Shown here: piece by piece, positions 19,198 to 37,350 of the stretch
How positions within the stretch are numbered: the first letter of the stretch is position 1
Layout: every line of letters starts with the position of its first letter
DNA from: Ignavibacteriota bacterium
GTDB lineage: Bacteria; Bacteroidota; Ignavibacteria; Kapaibacteriales; UBA2268
Assembly: GCA_024636855.1 (NCBI GenBank)
Contig: JAGXGG010000044.1
Coordinates: 1-46,209, forward strand
Length of the DNA: 46,209 nucleotides
Reading direction: 5' to 3'
Notes under the pieces: generated by a model
Told to the model about the DNA's origin: nothing
The model's database searches: none
Seen by the model: the letters and a program-made list of their open reading frames with translations, nothing else
Translations under genes and position numbers: made by a program

Positions 19198-20088
19198 TCA
19201 ATACCCTATATTCAACATCTTATATATAAGTGAAGCAGTAAGAATATCTGGATGTGATAATCCTTCCATTGGTGCTAATTCTACTACGTCGAAACCAATA
19301 ACTCGCTTGCCTGCTGCTTTAATCTTACGGAGTAAATCCAATGTCTCATGGTAAAGAAAACCATCTGGCTCGGGTGTACCAGTAGCTGGCATAATCGATG
19401 GATCGAAATAGTCCACATCGAATGTAATATACACCTCTTCGGCTAGTGTATCAACTACTGATTTTTGCCAATCTTGACCGTGCACTCCCCTTCTGATAGC
19501 ATTTGCGTAGAAAGTATTGACTTTATTTTCTTTGATGAATTTGGCTTCTTCTATGCACTGTGCTCTTATACCGACTTGTGTTATCTTATTATTTGGGAAG
19601 AACTCAGCTGTTCTTGCCATAATACTAGCGTGGGAGTACTTCGAGCCTTCGTAAGTGTCTCTAAAATCAGAATGTGCATCAAATTGTAGTACACTCATAT
19701 TAGGATATTTCTCGTGATGTGCCTTGATTGGAGCTGATGATATAGTATGTTCACCACCTAAAGTAATTACAAATTTATCCTTTGCTAGCAGCTCTTTTAC
19801 TTGGGAATAAATCATATCCAGAGCTTCTTTATTCGCTTTACCTTCGAAATTAATTGGCTCTACTGTGCATATCCCTTGCTCAAAGCATAATTCCCTGTCG
19901 AATTCCTCATCATAGAATTCTACAAATTGACTTGCTTTTATTATAGCTTCCGGGCCGTTTTTAGTACCACCACCATAACTAACTGTATGCTCATAAGGAG
20001 CGGATACAATCGCTACTTTGCTGTTGTCAAAACTAGAATTCTCTTCTTCTAAGGCAAGGAAATTATTTTCTATATCTAATATTTTCAT
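19198..20088 (-). CDS. speB: Agmatinase (ureohydrolase family)
   Basis: A 296-aa arginase/agmatinase-family enzyme. All manganese-binding signatures are visible: GGEHT with H114, FDAHSD with D137, H139 and D141, and FDVDYFDP with D224 and D226. The C-terminal GFDVVELAPMEG is typical of agmatinases. It would hydrolyse agmatine to putrescine and urea. Family members can act on other guanidino compounds, so the substrate is likely rather than certain. It is divergent from secA and separated by about 105 bp. The large basic-amino-acid decarboxylase at 32.9 kb could supply its substrate if that enzyme makes agmatine, but this is an inference across 13 kb. Confidence 0.88.
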   Translation of the reverse strand: MKILDIENNFLALEEENSSFDNSKVAIVSAPYEHTVSYGGGTKNGPEAIIKASQFVEFYDEEFDRELCFEQGICTVEPINFEGKANKEALDMIYSQVKELLAKDKFVITLGGEHTISSAPIKAHHEKYPNMSVLQFDAHSDFRDTYEGSKYSHASIMARTAEFFPNNKITQVGIRAQCIEEAKFIKENKVNTFYANAIRRGVHGQDWQKSVVDTLAEEVYITFDVDYFDPSIMPATGTPEPDGFLYHETLDLLRKIKAAGKRVIGFDVVELAPMEGLSHPDILTASLIYKMLNIGY

Positions 20089-26967: not shown

Positions 26968-28229
26968 GTGGGAAAAAAGGGAAATATCCATTCCAAGTAG
27001 TATGTTCATTTTGTGGACGTAACTCAAAGGAAGTTGAAAGTCTTATAGAAGGTGTCAATGAAGTCTATATATGTGATGTATGTATCAATACCTCTCATGA
27101 TTTGCTTAGTTCGAATAAGAAGAAAGATGAAGCCATAAATTTTGACATTAATCTTTCTACTCCTAAAAAGCTAAAAGAGAAGCTAGACGAATATGTAATC
27201 GGTCAAGAAAGAGCAAAGCAGGTCCTATCTGTAGCAGTCTATAATCACTACAAAAGAATATCTAATTTAGAATTAGATAATGAGTTCGATTCAGTAGAAT
27301 TAGAAAAAAGTAATGTCCTAATGCTGGGCCCAACTGGTACAGGTAAGACACTATTAGCAAAAACATTAGCTCGTTCGCTTAATGTCCCTTTTGCTATAGC
27401 AGATGCGACTACGGTAACTGAAGCAGGCTATGTCGGCGATGACGTTGAGACTGTACTATTAGCATTGTTGCAAAATGCAGACTATGACGAAAAAGCAGCT
27501 CAAAGAGGAATTATATACATTGACGAAATTGATAAGATTGGTCGTAAGAGCGAATCATCAAGTATAACTCGTGATGTATCTGGCGAAGGTGTGCAACAGG
27601 CACTTCTGAAAATACTAGAAGGCACTAAGGCAGGAATACCTCCTAAAGGTGGTAGAAAGCATCCAGAGCAAAAGCTAATCTATGTTGACACTACTAATAT
27701 ACTATTTATCTTAGGTGGTGCTTTTGACGGACTAGAGCAAGTGATTTCTCAAAGGTTGAAAAAGCAAACTGTTGGATTTGTAACTGATGACGAAGAAGGG
27801 CTAACTGATGAAAAAGATGAATTATTTAATAAAGTAGAAGCAGAAGACATAGTAAAATATGGTTTTATACCTGAATTAGTTGGTCGTATGCCTATAATAA
27901 CAGCGCTTAACTCATTGACTGAAGAAGCGATGCTAGACATACTAACTAAGCCGAAAAATGCTGTAATCAAGCAATACCAAAAGCTATTCGCTTATGAAGG
28001 TGTTGAACTAGAATTCACAGATGATGCACTAAAAGCTATTGCAAATAAAGCTATGAAAAGCAAAACTGGTGCCAGAGGACTAAGATCAATGGTAGAAGCA
28101 GCAATGCTAGATATAATGTACATAGTACCAGAAATGAAAGATCTAAAGAAGTGTATAATATCTGAAGACACTATTAATCTGAATTCAAGTCCTGAATTTA
28201 TTTATTCAAGCAAGAAGAATGTAATATAA
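26964..28229 (+). CDS. clpX: ATP-dependent Clp protease ATP-binding subunit ClpX
   Basis: A 421-aa AAA+ unfoldase. The N-terminal zinc-binding domain has C14, C17, C37 and C40 ([14 protein letters not shown]). Walker A is GPTGTGKT at 122-129, and Walker B is [10 protein letters not shown]. The pore-loop GYVGDDVE, the RKxP-type loop and sensor motifs are present ([19 protein letters not shown]). It feeds tagged proteins to ClpP. The start overlaps the clpP stop by 4 nt, and its own stop overlaps the next ATG by 1 nt (TAATG). Confidence 0.97.
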
Positions 28230-29182
28230 TGCCAGAAATAATTAACATAGCAGGGAAGAAAGTCCGCATCGGTGAAATAGAAGAAATTCATCTAAAAATA
28301 GCTAGGCTTCCTACTTATACAACTATCAATTTACCTGTGCATATATACAGAGGTATAAAAGATGGCCCTGTGTTGTTACTTACTGGTGGATTACATGGCG
28401 ATGAACTAAACGGAATAGAAATAATCCGAAGAATGATAAACAATGGTTCTATCATACCTGATTGTGGGACTGTTATAGCTATGCCGTTAGTGAATGCTTA
28501 TGGCTTTTTGCAAAATGTACGTGGTGTACCAGATGGAAAGGATATTAATCGTAGTTTCCCTGGCTCTAAGAATGGTTCATTAGCTAAGCTAATAGCACAT
28601 ACACTAATGCATCAGATAATACCGCTTATTGATTATGGGATTGACTTTCATACTGGAGGAGCTTCACGAGCAAATTATCCTCAGATTAGATGTGCATTTA
28701 CTGTACCAGAGAATATAGTTTTAGCAAGAGGGTTTGCACCTCCGATGATATTGAACTCTCCTTTAATTGAAAACTCTTTTAGAAAAGCAGCTTATCGTAA
28801 AGATAAGCATATACTCGTTTATGAAGCTGGTGAGTCACTTAGATTTTCGGATATTGCTATTCAAGAAGGCATCAACGGAACACTTCGACTAATGAAATAT
28901 CTTAATATGATAGAAGAAGCGCCTTTGCCAAATGAAGAAACTGTGATTTATCTAAAAAGTGATTGGTTAAGAGCAAAATACGCAGGAATGTTTTCTTCTT
29001 ATGTCGAACTAGGTCAGGAAATAAGCCATAAACAAAAAATTGGTCATATAGCTGAGCCTTTCGGACACGAAGAGTTCGAAATATTTGCAACTCGTAATGC
29101 ACGTGTAATTGGTGTGAACAATGCACCAGTAGTACACAAGGGCGATGCTCTAATACATTACGCTTATGAAATTAAAAAATAA
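28229..29182 (+). CDS. Succinylglutamate desuccinylase/aspartoacylase-family zinc hydrolase
   Basis: A 317-aa M14-like zinc enzyme. Zinc ligands fit H56 and E59 in GGLHGDELNG, with H141 in DFHTGG. INRSFPG (106-112) is the usual substrate-binding segment, and E204 in VYEAGES is a candidate catalytic acid. The family removes acyl groups from amino acids or trims poly-glutamate-like tails, and the substrate here is unknown. The 1-nt overlap with clpX makes cotranslation likely. A link to proteolysis, for example deacylating released amino acids, is speculation. A related aspartoacylase-like protein is often encoded beside RimK-type ATP-grasp ligases; here an ATP-grasp gene lies 6 kb downstream in another operon. 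Confidence 0.85.
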   Translation: MPEIINIAGKKVRIGEIEEIHLKIARLPTYTTINLPVHIYRGIKDGPVLLLTGGLHGDELNGIEIIRRMINNGSIIPDCGTVIAMPLVNAYGFLQNVRGVPDGKDINRSFPGSKNGSLAKLIAHTLMHQIIPLIDYGIDFHTGGASRANYPQIRCAFTVPENIVLARGFAPPMILNSPLIENSFRKAAYRKDKHILVYEAGESLRFSDIAIQEGINGTLRLMKYLNMIEEAPLPNEETVIYLKSDWLRAKYAGMFSSYVELGQEISHKQKIGHIAEPFGHEEFEIFATRNARVIGVNNAPVVHKGDALIHYAYEIKK

Positions 29183-29848: not shown

Positions 29849-29898
29849 GAAAATTTATTTTTTATAATTAAGTTATATATATAACTCTCAGCTTGCAG

Positions 29899-29930
29899 TC
29901 CCGTCTATTTTAATAGATGGGATTTTTTTT
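29899..29930 (+). terminator. Rho-independent terminator after rpmA
   Basis: An 11-bp stem (TCCCGTCTATT / AATAGATGGGA, one G-T pair) with a 2-nt loop in the sequence is followed by eight T. Confidence 0.85.
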
Positions 29931-30211: not shown

Positions 30212-31522
30212 ATGATAAAAGAAGTTAGTAAATCTGTGGAATTATTTGAGCGCAGAAGTAATGTCGTAGCCAATGGTATTGGGGTATTTAATACAGCTAC
30301 TGTTAGTCACGCAAAAGGTGCAATAATTACTGAAGTTGATGGAAGAGAGCTAATAGATTTTGCTGGTGGAATAGGGGTTGTTAATGCAGGTCATTGTCCA
30401 GAACCAGTAGTAGAAGCAATTCGCGAACAAGCTGGTAAATATTTACACACTAGTTTCAACGTAGTTACATATGAACCTTATATTCAACTTTGTGAGGAAT
30501 TAGTAGAAATACTCCCTCATGGTGAAAAGACAAAAGCAATGCTGGTATCAACTGGTGCAGAGGCAGTAGAAAATGCTATTAAAATTGCTCGCCAAGCTAC
30601 TAAACGTCAAGGTATTCTAAGTTTCTCTGATGCTTATCATGGCAGAACTATGATGGCAATGTCATTAACAAGTAAAGTAAGTTATAAAATAGACTGTGGC
30701 CCTTTTGCTCCAGAAGTATATCGACTTCCATTCCCCAACTTTTATACTAAAAGTAATGGTAGAAGTATGGAAGAGTTTGTACAAGACGAACTAAATCTCT
30801 TACAAGAAAGTACACTTAATTTGGTAGATATAAATAATCTAGCTGCCATAATAATAGAGCCAATACAAGGTGAAGGTGGGTTTAATCCAGTTCCCAAAGC
30901 TTATCTAGAAGGATTGAGAAAATTTTGTGATGATCATGGTGTTATGCTAATAATGGATGAAGTCCAAAGTGGTTTCTGCAGAACTGGTCACTGGGCTAGT
31001 TGGCAACATTATGGTATAGTACCAGATATTAGTACTTATGCTAAATCTATGGGGTCTGGATTACCTATAGCCGCAGTAGTTGGTAAAGCAGATATAATGG
31101 ATGCTGCTGCCATAGGATCTATAGGAGGGACTTATATCGGTAGTCCTATTAGCTGTGTTGCTTCTTCAGCAACTATACAGTATATGAAAGATATTAATCT
31201 AAATGAAAAAGCTCTTGAAATTGGTAGTATTATATACTCTAGATTAAATAAACTAAAAGAAGAGTGTCCAGCTATTGGCGATGTTCGTGGAGTTGGAGCA
31301 ATGATCGGGATGGAATTTGTTCAGAACGGTGATCCTAAAGTACCAAATTCAACTATATGTAAGAAAGTCGTAGAAGCTTGTTATGAAAACGGACTTATTA
31401 TCCTAAGTGCTGGAACACACAAAAATATTATTAGAATACTGTCACCACTTGTAATTACTCTAGATGAGCTAGACAAGGGGTTGACAATTTTAGAAACACA
31501 AATAAGAAATTTAACAAAATGA
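30212..31522 (+). CDS. GabT-like class III aminotransferase
   Basis: A 436-aa PLP-dependent aminotransferase closest in motifs to 4-aminobutyrate transaminases. The phosphate-binding segment is STGAEAVENAIKIAR (113-127), followed by YHGRTMMAMSLTSK. The cofactor Asp is D249 in IMDEVQSGFCRTG, and the Schiff-base Lys is K278 in TYAKSMGSGLPIAAVVG. IGGTYIGSPISC corresponds to the GGTYxGNP loop of GabT. Length is normal. The natural substrate is probably an omega-amino acid or diamine, but it is not determined. It is the first gene of a five-gene operon, and its stop overlaps the amidase ATG (ATGA), so the two are translationally coupled. Confidence 0.85.
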   Translation: MIKEVSKSVELFERRSNVVANGIGVFNTATVSHAKGAIITEVDGRELIDFAGGIGVVNAGHCPEPVVEAIREQAGKYLHTSFNVVTYEPYIQLCEELVEILPHGEKTKAMLVSTGAEAVENAIKIARQATKRQGILSFSDAYHGRTMMAMSLTSKVSYKIDCGPFAPEVYRLPFPNFYTKSNGRSMEEFVQDELNLLQESTLNLVDINNLAAIIIEPIQGEGGFNPVPKAYLEGLRKFCDDHGVMLIMDEVQSGFCRTGHWASWQHYGIVPDISTYAKSMGSGLPIAAVVGKADIMDAAAIGSIGGTYIGSPISCVASSATIQYMKDINLNEKALEIGSIIYSRLNKLKEECPAIGDVRGVGAMIGMEFVQNGDPKVPNSTICKKVVEACYENGLIILSAGTHKNIIRILSPLVITLDELDKGLTILETQIRNLTK

Positions 31523-32463
31523 ATCACATGAATACGTTTTCGATAGCTGGAATACAAATGAGAGTTTCCGCTGTCACACCAAATATAGAAATGATGAAGC
31601 TTAAAATAGATATCACAATGAATCTGTATCCTTGGATAGAGATGATAATGTTTAGTGAACTTTGTGCTTATGGGCCTCTAACCTATGCAGCACAAGAGTT
31701 TCCAAATAATTTTGAAGAAGAAATGCAAGCTATGGCTAAGAAGTATAACATTTGGTTATTACCCGGTTCTGCATTCGAAAAAAGTGAAGGTAAAATATAT
31801 AATACAGCTACGGTTATAAACCCAGATGGAGAGATTGTAACTAGATATAGAAAAATGTTTCCGTTCTATCCTTATGAAGTAGGAGTTGCACCAGGACATG
31901 AGTTCTGTGTATTCGACGTTCCTGATGTAGGACGGTTCGGAGTATCTATATGTTATGATATGTGGTTCCCAGAAACTACTCGTACTCTTGTATCTATGGG
32001 AGCAGAAGTAATACTTCACCCAACATTATCAGGAACAATAGATAGAGACATAGAGTTATCTATAGTAAGGGCAATGGCATCTGTAAATCAGTGCTTTTTC
32101 TTTGATGTAAATGGATTAGATACTGGTGGATGTGGACGTTCAATTGTTTGTGGTCCAGACGGTAGAGTATTACATCAATCAGATAGTACTGAAGAAATAA
32201 TACCTTTGGAATTAAACATGGATCACGTAAAACGAAGTCGTGAGCTAGGAATATTACGTTTAGGTCAGCCTTTAAAAAGTTTCAGAGATCATTTAGGTGA
32301 GTTTGACATTTATCATCCGGGAGCTAAATCAGAATATTTAGATTCTCTTGGACCGCTTATTAAGCCAACTCGATTAGAGACTTTGGCTAAATTAAAAATG
32401 CAAGAAGACAAAATAATGAATCCTGTATCACCAGTTCGATTTAAAGGAGATGGTTTAGTTTAA
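31519..32463 (+). CDS. Nitrilase-superfamily amidase (carbon-nitrogen hydrolase)
   Basis: A 314-aa carbon-nitrogen hydrolase. The catalytic set E47 (FSELCAYGP), K112 (RYRKMFPFYP) and C145 (VSICYDMWFPE) is complete, and E120 is the second conserved Glu. The sequence around YRKMFPFYPYE and the long C-terminal tail after GEFDIY resemble aliphatic amidase/formamidase branches more than N-carbamoylputrescine amidase. It should cleave a small amide or N-carbamoyl compound. The start at 31519 is coupled to the aminotransferase; an ATG nine bases later is also possible. It is second in the operon, so it may hydrolyse an amide made by the ATP-grasp enzyme encoded at the operon's end. Confidence 0.85.
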   Translation: MNHMNTFSIAGIQMRVSAVTPNIEMMKLKIDITMNLYPWIEMIMFSELCAYGPLTYAAQEFPNNFEEEMQAMAKKYNIWLLPGSAFEKSEGKIYNTATVINPDGEIVTRYRKMFPFYPYEVGVAPGHEFCVFDVPDVGRFGVSICYDMWFPETTRTLVSMGAEVILHPTLSGTIDRDIELSIVRAMASVNQCFFFDVNGLDTGGCGRSIVCGPDGRVLHQSDSTEEIIPLELNMDHVKRSRELGILRLGQPLKSFRDHLGEFDIYHPGAKSEYLDSLGPLIKPTRLETLAKLKMQEDKIMNPVSPVRFKGDGLV

Positions 32464-32482
32464 TAAATAAGGAGAATTAACA

Positions 32483-32890
32483 ATGGGTGGAACCCTAGGT
32501 CAGAAAAGAAATAAGAATGGAACAAGAAAGGACTTCGTAAGTTGGTTTGAAATACCCGCTATTGATTTTCAGCAAGCTGTAAACTTTTACAGTTATATTT
32601 TCGGTATTGAGATGGAACAAGTAATTAATGAGGATAGTGCTACAGCGTACTTCCCTGTTACTACTGGTATAGGCGGAGCAATAACATCTGGTTATAGTAA
32701 TGAGGCTAGTAGTAGCGGACCGCTATTATACTTAAATGGTGGCGATGACCTCAATAATGTTCTTAACAAAGTAGAAGATGCAGGAGGAAGAGTTATAATG
32801 ACTAAAACCTTAATATCAAAAAATGCTGGGTATTTTGCTGTTTTTATCGATTCTCAAGGAAATAAATTAGCATTATATTCAAAGAAGTAA
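32483..32890 (+). CDS. VOC (glyoxalase/bleomycin-resistance) family protein
   Basis: A 135-aa single VOC-fold protein: FVSWFEIPAIDFQQAVNFYSYIFGIEM is the first beta-alpha-beta unit and NVLNKVEDAGGRVIM the second, ending VFIDSQGNKLALYSK. VOC proteins bind a metal or small ligand and can be isomerases, dioxygenases or binding proteins, so the activity is unknown. A clear AAGGAG ribosome-binding site precedes the ATG. It is followed 2 bp later by the decarboxylase gene, in the middle of the operon. Confidence 0.82.
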   Translation: MGGTLGQKRNKNGTRKDFVSWFEIPAIDFQQAVNFYSYIFGIEMEQVINEDSATAYFPVTTGIGGAITSGYSNEASSSGPLLYLNGGDDLNNVLNKVEDAGGRVIMTKTLISKNAGYFAVFIDSQGNKLALYSKK

Positions 32891-32892
32891 AA

Positions 32893-35622
32893 ATGAAAAG
32901 AAACAAAATAGTAAGAACCCAATTTTATAACATTAGTCAACTTCGAATTAACTATTGGAATCGTCTAAAAGTTGATACACATAGTTTAAATGAAATAAAA
33001 TTAGATAAAACTAAAACAGAAAAAGTAAAAGCAAGAGTCAATCAGTTAATAGAAGAATTAATAAATATTGAATCTTACTTCTCTATCCCTGGTACTGCAA
33101 GACTAAAGACAATCCACAGCCTATTTAAATCAGAAGAGTATAGTCCATTAGCTTACATAATAAATGAAACTTGCAAACAGTTAGTTGGTAACAAACACAG
33201 TTTAGTTAACGACTCCGTTTCAGATGACGAAATGGATTTGTCTCGTATTGAAGATTCAGAGCAAGTTGTAAAAAGCAAGAGAAATCATTTTGATGTTTTG
33301 CTAATTGATAATATATCCGAACAAGAAGAATTAGACCTAAAAAGAAACTATAAGAATTTGAGTGAGAAAGGGGATAAATTCACCTATGATATAATTGTTC
33401 AGAAATCTTTCCAAGATGCTTTAATTGCATTACTGTTCAACCATAGTATCCAATCTGTTATAATACGATTTGCTCCAAGCTTTTACTCAAAGAGAATTAG
33501 AGATGAAATTTCGCCTTATGTAAATAGTATAAAAAAATATGATTTTACACGAATGGATGAAACAGAACTTGGTCCTAGACTAGGTGATCTGATCAAGAGA
33601 ATTAGACCTGAACTCGATGTATATTATGTTACTGATACTTCTCTTAGTAAATTAAAAGATAGCACTCTTAAGTGTTTCAAACGTATATTCTACCAATCTG
33701 AAGACATACAAGAAATGCATTTGACTATACTTAGAGGTATAGCTGAACGTTACGAAGCTCCATTCTTCTCTGCATTAGTTGATTATAGTCAAAAACCAAC
33801 TGGCGTGTTTCATGCAATGCCGATTTCAAGAGGAAATTCGGTATTCAAATCAAATTGGATAAATGACTTTGGAGAGTTCTATGGTAGGAATTTATTCCTT
33901 GCTGAGACTTCCGCTACTACTGGTGGCTTGGACTCACTACTTATGCCGACTGGGCCTCTTAAAATTGCGCAAGAAAAAGCACGTGATGCCTATGGGTCAC
34001 TCAATACTTATTTTGTAACAAATGGTACTTCTACTGCAAACAAAATTGTGCTACAAGCTTTAGTTAAGCCAAAAGATGTAGTTCTAATAGATAGAGATTG
34101 CCATAAATCACATCACTATGGACTAGTACTAGCAGGTGCTTATCCTGTATATTTGGATTCATACCCAATACAAGAATATTCTATGTACGGGGCGGTTCCA
34201 ATTAACCATATAACTGATAAGTTATTACACCTAAAAGAATCCGGTCGATTAGACAAAGTTAAAATGCTTCTATTAACAAATTGTACCTTTGATGGTATAG
34301 TATACAATGTAGAAAAAGTAATGCAAGAAGTATTAGCTATTAAACCGGACATGATTTTCTTGTGGGATGAAGCTTGGTTTGCATTTGCTAGCTTTGGGGT
34401 TAACTATAAGCAACGAACAGGTATGTTCACGGCTAATAAATTATCCGAAAAATATAAAAGTAAAGAATACAAAAAAGAATATGACAAACATATAAAGAGT
34501 CTAAAAAAAGGTGAGCGCCCAAGACTTCCAGACCCAGCAAAAGTAAGGGTTAGGGTCTATGCTACCCAAAGTACTCACAAGACATTAAGTAGTTTTAGAC
34601 AAGGGTCGATGATTCATATATGGGACGAAGATTTTAGAAGAAAATCTGAAAGCACATTCCTTGAAGCATATATGACACATACTTCTACTTCACCGAACTA
34701 CCAGATGTTAGCATCCTTAGATATAGGTCGAAGACAAGTGCAGTTCGAGGGGTTTGAGTTAGTTGAGAAAAGTATTGAAATGGCGATGCTATTAAGAGAG
34801 AAGATTGTAAATAGCCCACAACTAAACAAATATTTTGAAGTGCTGACAGTACATGATTTTATACCAAACGAAAGAAGGGAGTCCGGACTACAAGAGTATT
34901 ATACCAAAGAAACTGGCTGGAATCTGATGGAAGAAGCATGGAAAAAAGACGAGTTTGTGCTAGACCCTACTAAGATAACATTATGTATAGGTAAAACCGG
35001 GGTAGATGGTGATACTTTCAAAAATAAATACCTAATGGATAAATTTGGTATCCAGATTAATAAAACATCTAGAAATACAGTGCTATTCATGACAAATATT
35101 GGTACTACTAAGGGAAGTGTATCGTACCTAGTGAAAGCTCTGTTAAATATATCAGAAGAATTAGATGATGAGTTACGTTCATTAAATGAAAAGGAATTAG
35201 AGCTTCACGACAAAAGAATTTATTCATTGATGAAAGATGTACCTCCACTTCCCGATTTTAGTTATTTTCATGATTCATTCCAAGCTGTACCCGGTGTACC
35301 GGGTGGAGACATTCGTTCTGCTTATTATTTAGCTTACGATGAAAAGAATTATGAGTACATATTATTAGAAAATTGTCTGGAAGTTATGAAAACTGGTAGA
35401 GTACTTGTTGCTTCTACTTTTTTGATACCATACCCTCCTGGTTTTCCAGTTTTAGTACCAGGGCAAGTAATAAGTGAAGAGATAATAAACTTCATGTTGG
35501 CATTAGACGTTTCAGAAGTACACGGTTATAATTCGAAATTAGGAATGAGAATATTCAAAGAAAAAGTATTACAAAGAGATCAAATATATTCATCTATTGG
35601 TGGAATCTCCACAATTAAATAA
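32893..35622 (+). CDS. Large Orn/Lys/Arg-type PLP decarboxylase
   Basis: A 909-aa fold-type I decarboxylase, longer than E. coli AdiA/CadA (about 715-755 aa). Residues 1-280 are an N-terminal region containing a receiver/flavodoxin-like wing domain (FDVLLIDN at 133-140). The PLP core shows FVTNGTSTANKIV (374-386), DRDCHKSHHYGLVLAGA (401-417), LWDEAWFAF (490-498) and the Schiff-base Lys K563 in QSTHKTLSSFRQGSMIH. A lysine-rich insertion lies at about 515-555. The C-terminal decarboxylase domain has YPPGFPVLVPGQVI (about 855-868). It should remove CO2 from a basic amino acid to give a di- or polyamine. Arginine, lysine and ornithine cannot be told apart here. It is fourth in the operon. Confidence 0.85.
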   Translation: MKRNKIVRTQFYNISQLRINYWNRLKVDTHSLNEIKLDKTKTEKVKARVNQLIEELINIESYFSIPGTARLKTIHSLFKSEEYSPLAYIINETCKQLVGNKHSLVNDSVSDDEMDLSRIEDSEQVVKSKRNHFDVLLIDNISEQEELDLKRNYKNLSEKGDKFTYDIIVQKSFQDALIALLFNHSIQSVIIRFAPSFYSKRIRDEISPYVNSIKKYDFTRMDETELGPRLGDLIKRIRPELDVYYVTDTSLSKLKDSTLKCFKRIFYQSEDIQEMHLTILRGIAERYEAPFFSALVDYSQKPTGVFHAMPISRGNSVFKSNWINDFGEFYGRNLFLAETSATTGGLDSLLMPTGPLKIAQEKARDAYGSLNTYFVTNGTSTANKIVLQALVKPKDVVLIDRDCHKSHHYGLVLAGAYPVYLDSYPIQEYSMYGAVPINHITDKLLHLKESGRLDKVKMLLLTNCTFDGIVYNVEKVMQEVLAIKPDMIFLWDEAWFAFASFGVNYKQRTGMFTANKLSEKYKSKEYKKEYDKHIKSLKKGERPRLPDPAKVRVRVYATQSTHKTLSSFRQGSMIHIWDEDFRRKSESTFLEAYMTHTSTSPNYQMLASLDIGRRQVQFEGFELVEKSIEMAMLLREKIVNSPQLNKYFEVLTVHDFIPNERRESGLQEYYTKETGWNLMEEAWKKDEFVLDPTKITLCIGKTGVDGDTFKNKYLMDKFGIQINKTSRNTVLFMTNIGTTKGSVSYLVKALLNISEELDDELRSLNEKELELHDKRIYSLMKDVPPLPDFSYFHDSFQAVPGVPGGDIRSAYYLAYDEKNYEYILLENCLEVMKTGRVLVASTFLIPYPPGFPVLVPGQVISEEIINFMLALDVSEVHGYNSKLGMRIFKEKVLQRDQIYSSIGGISTIK

Positions 35623-35632
35623 GGGAAAGATT

Positions 35633-37300
35633 ATGAGTGCAAAAAAGAAAGAAATAACCCCAAAGAAAGCAACAGCTACAAAGAAAGCTGTTACTGCTAA
35701 AAAAGCAACTACTCCAAAAAAAGCCACAGTTAAAAAGAAGGTAGCAACACCGAAAAAAGCTGCAACTCCTAGCAAAGCTGTAGCTAAGAAAAAAGCAACA
35801 ACAATAAAGAAAGTAACTAAGAAAGCAGTTAAAAAGACTGTTACGAAAGAGCTATTAAATGGTGTTCCTGATATCCGAAGATTCTTCTATAAGAATGAGA
35901 TCCCAATATATTTTATAAGTGCAACAAACTTTAATCTATTGGGAGCAGATGAATGGATAAAAGGTTTTAAATTTATATCACACATAGAGTGTTTTGATGG
36001 TCAGCATCCGAATGTTTTTTCACCTAAAAATGAAATCCCACATGATGAATTTACAAGTATAGAAGACATTAACAACTATCTACTTATGCATCCAGAAGTA
36101 CAAGACTATCTAGTAACTCGTAAGAAAGGTAGAACTACTGGTAAAGCTATGTTTCTAATGTTCAATGAAGAGACAGAGAAATTAGCCAAAAAACTAGGTC
36201 TTGAGATAATATTCCCATCTGCAAAGATGAGAAACTTCATGGACAATAAAGTAAATACGAATAGAATAGCTGAAAGAGCTGGAGTAGCTTGTGTACCTTA
36301 TGTTTTATCAAAAGTGAAGGATTTCGAACATTTACGTAGAGTCTCATCTGATTTGGGTGAAAGTTTGGTTATTCAAACTCCATATGGCGATTCAGGTCAC
36401 ACAACTTTCTTTATCTCTAATGAAGCTGAGTATAACAAGCATAAAGAAGACATAGAGAAAGAAAAAGAAGTAAAAATAATGAAACGAATCCGTTGTAAAG
36501 GTTCTGCTATAGAGGCATGTGTAACGCGACACGGTACTATAGTTGCACCTCTGATGACTGAATTAGTTGGATTCAATGAATTAACACCGTACAAAGGTGG
36601 ATGGTGTGGTAATGAGATTTATCCTGATGCATTTACACCTGATATCAGAAACAAAGCAGCGGAATTTACTAAGAAATTTGGTAATCAATTGAGAAAAGAA
36701 GGTTACAAAGGTTACTTTGAATTAGATTTCTTAATCGATCAAGATAATGGTGAGATCTATCTAGGCGAATTAAACCCTCGTGTAACTGGAGCTAGCTCTA
36801 TTACTAATCATGCTGTATTTGCTTTAGCTGATGCACCACTATTCGTATTTCATATACTAGAGTGGATGAAAGTAGATTATAAAATTGATGTAGATAAAAT
36901 CAATGAAAGATGGGCAAGACAAAGAAATATAGATGAGTGGAGTCAACTAATAATCAAACATACCGAAGACACAATTGAATATGTTGTAGAAGCTCCGAGA
37001 TCTGGTATATATAAAATGTTTGATAATGGACATATCCAATATGACAGGATGGACACTCATAGAAGAGCAGTTGAATCGGAACAAGAAGCTTTCTATTTAC
37101 ATATATCAAAATCAGGCGATTATCTTTATGAAGGTGCCGATATGGGTATATTAGTATCTAGAGGTAGAATGATGACGAAAGATTTCAGATTGAATCAACG
37201 AGCTAAGAAATGGATAGATGCTATTAGAGCTCAATACTCTACTAGACTAATCAATGATAAGAGAATAGAAAAGCATTTGAAAGGATCTTTAACTAAGTAG
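35633..37300 (+). CDS. ATP-grasp ligase with histone-H1-like lysine-rich tail
   Basis: A 555-aa protein. The ATG at 35633 is chosen because an AAGGGA ribosome-binding site precedes it and it begins 10 nt after the decarboxylase stop; a longer in-frame start would overlap that gene. Residues 1-72 hold about 27 lysines in KKA and TPKK repeats, like histone H1 or bacterial H1-like tails. Residues about 80-420 are an ATP-grasp domain: NKVNTNRIAERAGVACVPYV, the glycine loop TPYGDSGHTTFF, and the metal site FELDFLI ... LGELNPRVTGASS (362-388). The remaining C-terminal region is unassigned. ATP-grasp enzymes of this kind join a carboxylate, through an acyl phosphate, to an amine or thiol. The substrate is unknown. 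Such proteins are often labelled biotin carboxylase, but no biotin-carrier gene is present. Confidence 0.82.
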   Translation: MSAKKKEITPKKATATKKAVTAKKATTPKKATVKKKVATPKKAATPSKAVAKKKATTIKKVTKKAVKKTVTKELLNGVPDIRRFFYKNEIPIYFISATNFNLLGADEWIKGFKFISHIECFDGQHPNVFSPKNEIPHDEFTSIEDINNYLLMHPEVQDYLVTRKKGRTTGKAMFLMFNEETEKLAKKLGLEIIFPSAKMRNFMDNKVNTNRIAERAGVACVPYVLSKVKDFEHLRRVSSDLGESLVIQTPYGDSGHTTFFISNEAEYNKHKEDIEKEKEVKIMKRIRCKGSAIEACVTRHGTIVAPLMTELVGFNELTPYKGGWCGNEIYPDAFTPDIRNKAAEFTKKFGNQLRKEGYKGYFELDFLIDQDNGEIYLGELNPRVTGASSITNHAVFALADAPLFVFHILEWMKVDYKIDVDKINERWARQRNIDEWSQLIIKHTEDTIEYVVEAPRSGIYKMFDNGHIQYDRMDTHRRAVESEQEAFYLHISKSGDYLYEGADMGILVSRGRMMTKDFRLNQRAKKWIDAIRAQYSTRLINDKRIEKHLKGSLTK

Positions 37301-37325
37301 TAAGCAATCAAATGAATTATAATAG

Positions 37326-37350
37326 ACCCTACCGACTGGTAGGGTTTTTT
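37326..37350 (+). terminator. Rho-independent terminator after the five-gene operon
   Basis: An 8-bp perfect stem (ACCCTACC / GGTAGGGT) with a GACT loop is followed by a T run, closing the operon. Confidence 0.85.

What the first reader, a model, noticed from the sequence alone, without database searches (positions are those of the whole stretch)
30212..37300. Five-gene operon: aminotransferase, amidase, VOC protein, large decarboxylase, histone-tailed ATP-grasp ligase
Gaps are -4, 19, 2 and 10 bp, and a terminator follows only the last gene, so this is one transcription unit. Known family activities are transamination of omega-amines, amide hydrolysis, decarboxylation of a basic amino acid and ATP-dependent amide formation. 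Together they resemble an amine-conjugating pathway built from other folds than the glutamine-synthetase-type Puu pathway, or a biosynthetic route to a modified polyamine. I know of no named pathway with this set. The metabolic proposal is inference.
Basis: partly seen in the sequence, partly recalled or inferred. Interest (0 to 1): 0.78.

Follow-up and report, generated by a model that had tools for sequence, protein, structure and literature searches.

The report
Conserved orphan operon leading to GABA
Five neighbouring genes in this bacterium belong to a gene set that bacteria of several phyla keep together in the same order, probably to turn an amino acid into GABA and then succinate by steps not yet described, and one of its enzymes is a relative of an enzyme of unknown function in the tuberculosis bacterium.

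Summary
In detail: five same-strand ORFs with gaps of -4, 19, 2 and 10 bp between two terminator-like hairpins. The set is rare but tightly linked. The ATP-grasp gene is in 7 of 395 sampled genomes of the phylum, the decarboxylase in 8, the same 7 plus one cut at a contig end. Of 61 named-genome loci with at least 6.5 kb upstream of the ATP-grasp gene, 61 have the decarboxylase and 52 each the aminotransferase, the amidase and the VOC gene. Many loci hold two more genes that the window lacks: a C45 Ntn-amidase (49 of 67) and a succinate-semialdehyde-type dehydrogenase (47 of 67).

The aminotransferase keeps five GABA-transaminase active-site residues in 55 of 55 copies. The decarboxylase has Asn where E. 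coli lysine and ornithine decarboxylases have a postulated substrate-binding Glu, so lysine or ornithine is doubtful; arginine is not excluded. Its best solved relative is Rv2531c of M. tuberculosis, activity unknown.

Best reading: a catabolic route through amide intermediates to GABA, then succinate; the substrate is unresolved. No described pathway was found in the open papers searched.

The parts
29897..29924 (+). Terminator-like hairpin between the ribosomal protein genes L21-L27 and the operon
30212..31522 (+). AT3: class-III aminotransferase, GABA-transaminase-like
   Evidence: PF00202 1e-121; TIGR00700 479.9 bits against cut-off 506.65; GabT residues I50, R141, E211, K268, R398 kept in 55 of 55, but GabT Q79 is Asn in 55 of 55
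31519..32463 (+). CNH: carbon-nitrogen hydrolase (nitrilase superfamily amidase)
   Evidence: PF00795 7.5e-30; E47, K112 and C145 invariant in 23 of 23 aligned
32483..32890 (+). VOC: glyoxalase-fold protein, optional member
   Evidence: PF00903; present in 52 of 61 loci
32893..35622 (+). ODC: 909-aa PLP decarboxylase of the OKR family, Rv2531c-like
   Evidence: PF01276 1.7e-74; PDB 9n0n 1.5e-234; PLP Lys563, Asn723
35633..37300 (+). ATPG: ATP-grasp protein, NF005096 'biotin carboxylase' family (open frame from TTG 35597)
   Evidence: 786.4 bits against cut-off 684; model pLDDT 87.9, ATP-grasp fold
35633..35869 (+). Lys/Ala/Thr-rich, H1-like N-terminal tail of ATPG; variable among homologues
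37324..37347 (+). Terminator-like hairpin after the operon

Best explanation
A patchily distributed catabolic operon, reduced here to five genes, that turns an amino acid into GABA by way of amide intermediates and feeds GABA into the TCA cycle. ODC removes the alpha-carboxyl of a substrate that is probably not lysine or ornithine (a glutamate/glutamine-type or arginine-type compound). ATPG uses ATP to make an amide bond that masks an amine or activates a carboxylate. The amidases (CNH, and C45 where present) cleave amides to release GABA. AT3 transaminates GABA to succinate semialdehyde, and the linked aldehyde dehydrogenase oxidises that to succinate; in the window's genome a general dehydrogenase elsewhere would have to do so. 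Shown: linkage, order, catalytic residues, folds, GABA-type transaminase site. Inferred: every substrate, the direction, the order of ODC and ATPG, and the roles of VOC and the Lys-rich tail.
For: Conserved order AT3-CNH-(VOC)-ODC-ATPG-(C45)-(ALDH) (gaps). Gene distances correlate, r 0.77-0.89 over 53 loci, which joint vertical descent would also give. AT3 is the only close GABA-transaminase-like protein in the window's genome (next best 33%) and keeps five GabT site residues in 55 of 55. The linked ALDH is closest to SSADH models in the rows shown, 42% mean identity to E. coli Sad, with the catalytic Cys in 57 of 57. The C45 model matches isopenicillin N acyltransferase at Z 30.4, with other Ntn amidases below; the nucleophile Cys is invariant in 27 of 27. 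Import genes accompany it in some loci: an amino-acid permease between ODC and ATPG in L082, L087 and L109 (family tested on the L061 member) and ABC transporters in Roseobacter and rhizobia. A gabT gene lies near the Roseobacter copy.
Against: No substrate was tested. AT3, ALDH, CNH and ODC score below every NCBIfam cut-off among the rows shown, so their names are loose. GabT Q79 is Asn in all AT3 copies; my check of the GabD substrate residues used recalled positions that did not line up, so it is inconclusive. ATPG's structural neighbours (PylC, biotin carboxylase, PurK) are tied within about 1-2 Z, so ligase and carboxylase are not separated. A separate PF00282 pyridoxal-dependent decarboxylase, the family that includes glutamate decarboxylase, exists in 9 of 9 genomes checked, so ODC may not be needed for plain Glu to GABA. 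The MocR-family regulator beside the Cupriavidus copy passes the PdxR cut-off, not GabR's. Eight of 67 loci hold neither C45 nor ALDH, and one subgroup keeps only VOC-ODC-ATPG within the stretch seen, so the full route is not obligatory.
Confidence: 0.45

Rival explanations
1. Puu-like polyamine catabolism: ODC makes putrescine, cadaverine or agmatine, ATPG acylates it, AT3 and ALDH oxidise the free end, an amidase releases GABA.
For: Ligase, amidases, aldehyde dehydrogenase and GABA transaminase are all linked.
Against: No amine oxidase or diamine-type transaminase recurs among the neighbours that were clustered; AT3 is GABA-type, not PatA-type, at R141; the Glu of Lys and Orn decarboxylases is Asn in 84 of 84 readable copies.
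Confidence: 0.2
2. Arginine route: ODC decarboxylates arginine, to agmatine or oxidatively to 4-guanidinobutyramide; CNH hydrolyses the amide; a ureohydrolase gives GABA and urea; AT3 and ALDH finish. This follows the known arginine monooxygenase chemistry with another first enzyme.
For: CNH, ATPG and C45 sit with 2-ketoarginine decarboxylase, aldehyde dehydrogenase and an annotated agmatinase in Shinella and in a near-copy in Roseateles; a CNH relative lies with 2-ketoarginine decarboxylase in Ensifer; AdiA also lacks the Glu (Thr); [quoted passage not shown] a urea transporter is beside one subgroup; ureohydrolase family PF00491 in 9 of 9 genomes; arginine to 4-guanidinobutyramide to 4-guanidinobutyrate is described in PMC5082578 (passages).
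Against: Shinella's locus has no ODC; no ureohydrolase gene was recognised among the recurrent neighbours that were tested in the Bacteroidota loci; the one in the window is an agmatinase by cut-off; ATPG and C45 stay unexplained; oxidative chemistry by this fold is conjecture.
Confidence: 0.18
3. Biosynthesis of a small amide product (dipeptide, conjugated amine, signal or osmolyte) with the amidases for turnover.
For: ODC is the most constant partner of the ATP-grasp gene (61 of 61); one subgroup shows only VOC-ODC-ATPG; a rhizobial copy is divergent from nifHDK in two records.
Against: GABA transaminase, semialdehyde dehydrogenase and importers point to breakdown.
Confidence: 0.15

Closest known systems
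Puu (gamma-glutamylated putrescine) pathway of E. coli
   Same: Logic of ligase, aldehyde dehydrogenase, amidase and GABA transaminase (Puu steps recalled).
   Different: ATP-grasp protein, PLP decarboxylase and nitrilase/C45 amidases here; no amine oxidase was recognised among the recurrent neighbours tested; the Puu gene families were not searched for.
Dav and arginine-monooxygenase routes (amino acid to omega-amino amide to omega-amino acid to semialdehyde)
   Same: CN-hydrolase amidase, class-III aminotransferase and semialdehyde dehydrogenase in sequence (Dav recalled; first steps of the arginine route from PMC5082578, passages).
   Different: The first enzyme is a PLP decarboxylase-fold protein, not a flavin monooxygenase (recalled); an extra ATP-grasp protein and C45 amidase.
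Rv2531c of Mycobacterium tuberculosis
   Same: Relative of ODC over residues 13-897, E 1.5e-234, same Gln-x-Asn-Lys-Thr pocket motif.
   Different: Activity unknown according to PMC12910592 (passages); Ile where ODC has Arg727; its own gene neighbourhood was not examined here.
Decarboxylase/AspT antiporter pairs in Ensifer, Rhizobium and Rhodobacter
   Same: ODC relative with the same pocket Asn.
   Different: Paired with an annotated aspartate-alanine antiporter; no ATPG, CNH or AT3 annotated within about 9 kb.

Membership tests
Lysine/ornithine decarboxylase (OKR family) | OKR_DC_1 domain and PLP lysine | tested here: met
   PF01276 1.7e-74; Lys563 in 79 of 79 readable of 85 copies
Lysine/ornithine decarboxylase (OKR family) | Glu at CadA E526 position, a postulated substrate site (PMC5607190, passages) | tested here: not met
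   Asn in 84 of 84 readable of 85 copies; E in CadA, LdcC, SpeC and SpeF, T in AdiA
Lysine/ornithine decarboxylase (OKR family) | Score over an NCBIfam cut-off | tested here: not met
   Best 202.9 bits against 968
GABA transaminase | Active-site I50, R141, E211, K268, R398 of GabT (roles recalled) | tested here: met
   55 of 55 copies; GabT Q79 is Asn in 55 of 55
GABA transaminase | Score over TIGR00700 cut-off | tested here: not met
   479.9 against 506.65
N-carbamoylputrescine amidase (AguB) | Score over TIGR03381 cut-off | tested here: not met
   83.4 against 410.25
Nitrilase superfamily amidase | Glu-Lys-Cys triad (recalled) | tested here: met
   E47, K112, C145 invariant in 23 of 23
NF005096 (PRK06524) ATP-grasp family | Score over cut-off | tested here: met
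   786.4 against 684
Biotin carboxylase (AccC) | Score over AccC cut-offs | tested here: not met
   32.6 against 686 and 32.5 against 597
Biotin carboxylase (AccC) | Carboxylates biotin | not testable with these tools
   Needs an assay; the structural match is tied with PylC and PurK
C45 autoproteolytic amidase (linked gene, not in the window) | Score over NF040521 and fold of isopenicillin N acyltransferase | tested here: met
   152.4 against 85 for the L095 copy; Z 30.4 to 2x1c for the L082 model
Succinate-semialdehyde dehydrogenase (linked gene, not in the window) | Score over TIGR01780 cut-off | tested here: not met
   325.5 against 646.35 for the L041 copy; catalytic Cys in 57 of 57
Puu pathway | Glutamine-synthetase-type PuuA ligase | not tested
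   No PuuA search was made in these genomes

The most novel reading that the evidence does not exclude
Decarboxylation on a small-molecule amide carrier: ATPG couples glutamate through an amide to an amine, the OKR-fold enzyme decarboxylates the gamma-glutamyl amide to a GABA amide, and the C45 or nitrilase amidase releases GABA and the carrier. That would be a free-standing version of the butirosin logic (recalled), and it would give the Rv2531c family a non-basic substrate.
Probability: 0.1. Interest if true: 0.82.

Novelty: new variant of a known kind. Interest (0 to 1): 0.6.

Why it matters
An ordered module of up to seven genes recurs in Bacteroidota and Ignavibacteria, with five members in a Gemmatimonadaceae genome and ODC-ATPG-ALDH on a short Calditrichaeota contig. 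Its ODC-ATPG-C45 core is on plasmids of Alpha- and Betaproteobacteria, in two Rhizobium leguminosarum records beside nifHDK. No pathway was found for it in the papers searched. It gives a testable functional context to the Rv2531c decarboxylase family, which has a solved structure but no known reaction, and warns that 'ornithine decarboxylase' and 'biotin carboxylase' labels on these genes are probably wrong.

Tried and rejected
Defence function: only a weak hit of CNH to a nitrilase-bearing DRT model, E 6.9e-5; rejected. Viral spread: no relative of ATPG among 139 pattern matches in viral contigs. Riboswitch or RNA element: only the tRNA. N-carbamoylputrescine route: AguB cut-off not met, and agmatine deiminase family PF04371 in only 4 of 9 genomes, none in the window's; rejected as general. 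Polyamine biosynthesis: SpeA over the cut-off in 3 of 9 genomes, among them the window's (weaker matches in the other 6), with an agmatinase in the window; not needed. My own early idea, written in the notebook, that Asn723 excludes every basic substrate was weakened by AdiA, which has Thr there. A first search for the C45 gene with one protein found nothing in 5 genomes, but had no positive control; it was repeated with NF040521 and positives. PMC8407117 looked relevant by words, but the passages were not; PMC7806604 passages did not bear on the substrate pocket. Literature searches found no matching pathway; only open-licence PMC papers are covered, and most hits were seen as listings only. 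PMC12329521 (Rv2531c structure) is not held, so I have not read it.
Full report
Observation. The ATP-grasp gene most likely starts at ATG 35633, 10 bp after the decarboxylase stop. I call the genes AT3, CNH, VOC, ODC and ATPG.

Linkage. ATPG belongs to NF005096. It reaches the cut-off in 3 of 40 genomes of the nearest relatives, the window's own included; a fourth, G001, is cut by a contig end, and 26 further genomes show only weak matches. It matches at E <= 1e-80 in 7 of 395 genomes sampled across the phylum, the own one included. ODC is in 8 of 395, the same seven plus G224, where it runs to a contig end. Of these 80, 61 have at least 6.5 kb upstream of ATPG: ODC is present in 61, AT3 in 52, CNH in 52, VOC in 52. 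Of 77 with at least 700 bp upstream, 76 have ODC; the exception, L096, is a 5.5-kb contig. Only L075 has a member on the other strand, its C45. Median gaps of the same-strand pairs are 4.5 bp (AT3-CNH, n 46), 17.5 (CNH-VOC, n 42), 3 (VOC-ODC, n 52) and 21.5 (ODC-ATPG, n 64), with a few insertions of up to 4.2 kb. Pairwise distances of AT3, CNH, ODC and ATPG correlate with r 0.77-0.89 over 53 loci; genes that travel together, or simple joint descent, would both give this. Patchy presence suggests horizontal transfer, but no gene tree was built.

Two further members. Clustering neighbours gave a C45 Ntn-hydrolase and an aldehyde dehydrogenase, as a rule downstream of ATPG. Among 67 loci with at least 4 kb downstream, C45 is somewhere in the locus in 49 and ALDH (hits of at least 35% identity) in 47; 8 have neither, among them L036 of the window's genus. 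In G000, G001, G002, G003 and G030 no C45 protein reaches the cut-off (weak matches, about 1e-5, in three), while 5 of the 6 other genomes searched in the same call have one; G203's has a stop inside and G395 has none. Aldehyde dehydrogenases at 32% identity or less remain in G000. The window thus carries a reduced version.

Enzymes. AT3 has the GabT residues I50, R141, E211, K268 and R398 in 55 of 55; PatA has Phe and Lys at the first two; GabT Q79 is Asn in 55 of 55 (roles of these residues are recalled). CNH keeps Glu-Lys-Cys in 23 of 23. ODC keeps the PLP lysine, but at the CadA Glu526 position it has Asn in 84 of 84 readable copies of 85, in 7 of 7 proteobacterial and 3 of 3 AspT-linked relatives, and in Rv2531c. 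CadA, LdcC, SpeC and SpeF have Glu, AdiA has Thr. Glu526 is only a postulated substrate site (PMC5607190, passages). PMC8503589 (passages) notes that a considerable number of relatives of the shorter form of this fold are unlikely to be polyamine enzymes. The ATPG model (pLDDT 87.9) matches PylC at Z 23.3, biotin carboxylase at 22.6 and PurK near 22, which does not separate ligase from carboxylase. The C45 model (L082 copy, pLDDT 93.1) matches isopenicillin N acyltransferase at Z 30.4.

Other contexts. On plasmids, 32 records match ATPG, all from Alpha- and Betaproteobacteria by organism name, 24 of them over at least 80% of the query. Roseobacter ponti has gabT, CNH, ODC, ATPG and C45 with ABC transporters annotated in part for peptides. 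Two Rhizobium leguminosarum records have ODC-ATPG-C45-ABC transporter-amidase-MurR divergent from nifHDK; a third, WSM1689, has the same operon with other genes upstream. Shinella, and a near-copy in Roseateles, have ATPG-C45 with ketoarginine decarboxylase, aldehyde dehydrogenase and an annotated agmatinase, and CNH nearby, without ODC in the stretch; Roseateles has ODC elsewhere on the same record, near an arginase gene. Ensifer has a CNH relative (45% identity over 75% of the query) beside ketoarginine decarboxylase. These arginine contexts are the main evidence for the arginine rival.

Interpretation. The transaminase and dehydrogenase point to GABA as the last amino intermediate; the decarboxylase pocket argues against lysine and ornithine; an ATP-grasp protein and two amidases point to amide intermediates. 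I therefore favour an amide-based route to GABA and succinate, at 0.45, with the substrate open. Against it: a separate PF00282 protein exists in 9 of 9 genomes, NCBIfam cut-offs are not met by AT3, CNH, ODC or ALDH in the rows shown, and no reaction was tested.

Novelty. Each family is known; the assembly is not described in the papers I could search (open-licence PMC only). [quoted passage not shown] I rate it a new variant of a known kind.

Noticed in passing
window 19198-20088 (-): Agmatinase (TIGR01230, 228.8 bits against cut-off 174.3) in the same window, 10 kb from the operon.
   Followed up: partly
window 28229-29182 (+); L027 3366-4292 (-): AstE/AspA-type deacylase follows clpP-clpX just upstream; a relative (50%) also lies about 5 kb from the operon in another family (L027), so it may be functionally linked.
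   Followed up: no
window 35633-35869: Histone-H1-like Lys/Ala/Thr-rich tail on the ATP-grasp protein. Among 69 homologues with a readable anchor, 40 have an N-terminal extension of 40 aa or more, 25 of those with at least 25% Lys; L033-L035 have 15-17 aa only. Start sites are not certain.
   Followed up: partly
L127, L128, L129: ODC relatives paired with annotated AspT antiporters, looking like a decarboxylation/antiport system of unknown substrate.
   Followed up: partly
L166 4829-17678, L167 5750-18680: ODC-ATPG-C45-transporter operon divergent from nifHDK on two Rhizobium leguminosarum plasmids.
   Followed up: partly
L103, L107, L108, L110, L112, L113, L114: A gene of the cluster whose L103 member is a urea-transporter/M23-peptidase fusion lies beside VOC-ODC-ATPG in this subgroup.
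   Followed up: no
L088 5791-9841, L089 5775-9813: A protein of about 945 aa without Pfam or NCBIfam match (L089 copy tested) and a heptosyltransferase-like gene are inserted between ODC and ATPG.
   Followed up: no
L092 4650-5600: AT3 matches only in pieces (Polaribacter sp. IC066), so it looks broken there.
   Followed up: no
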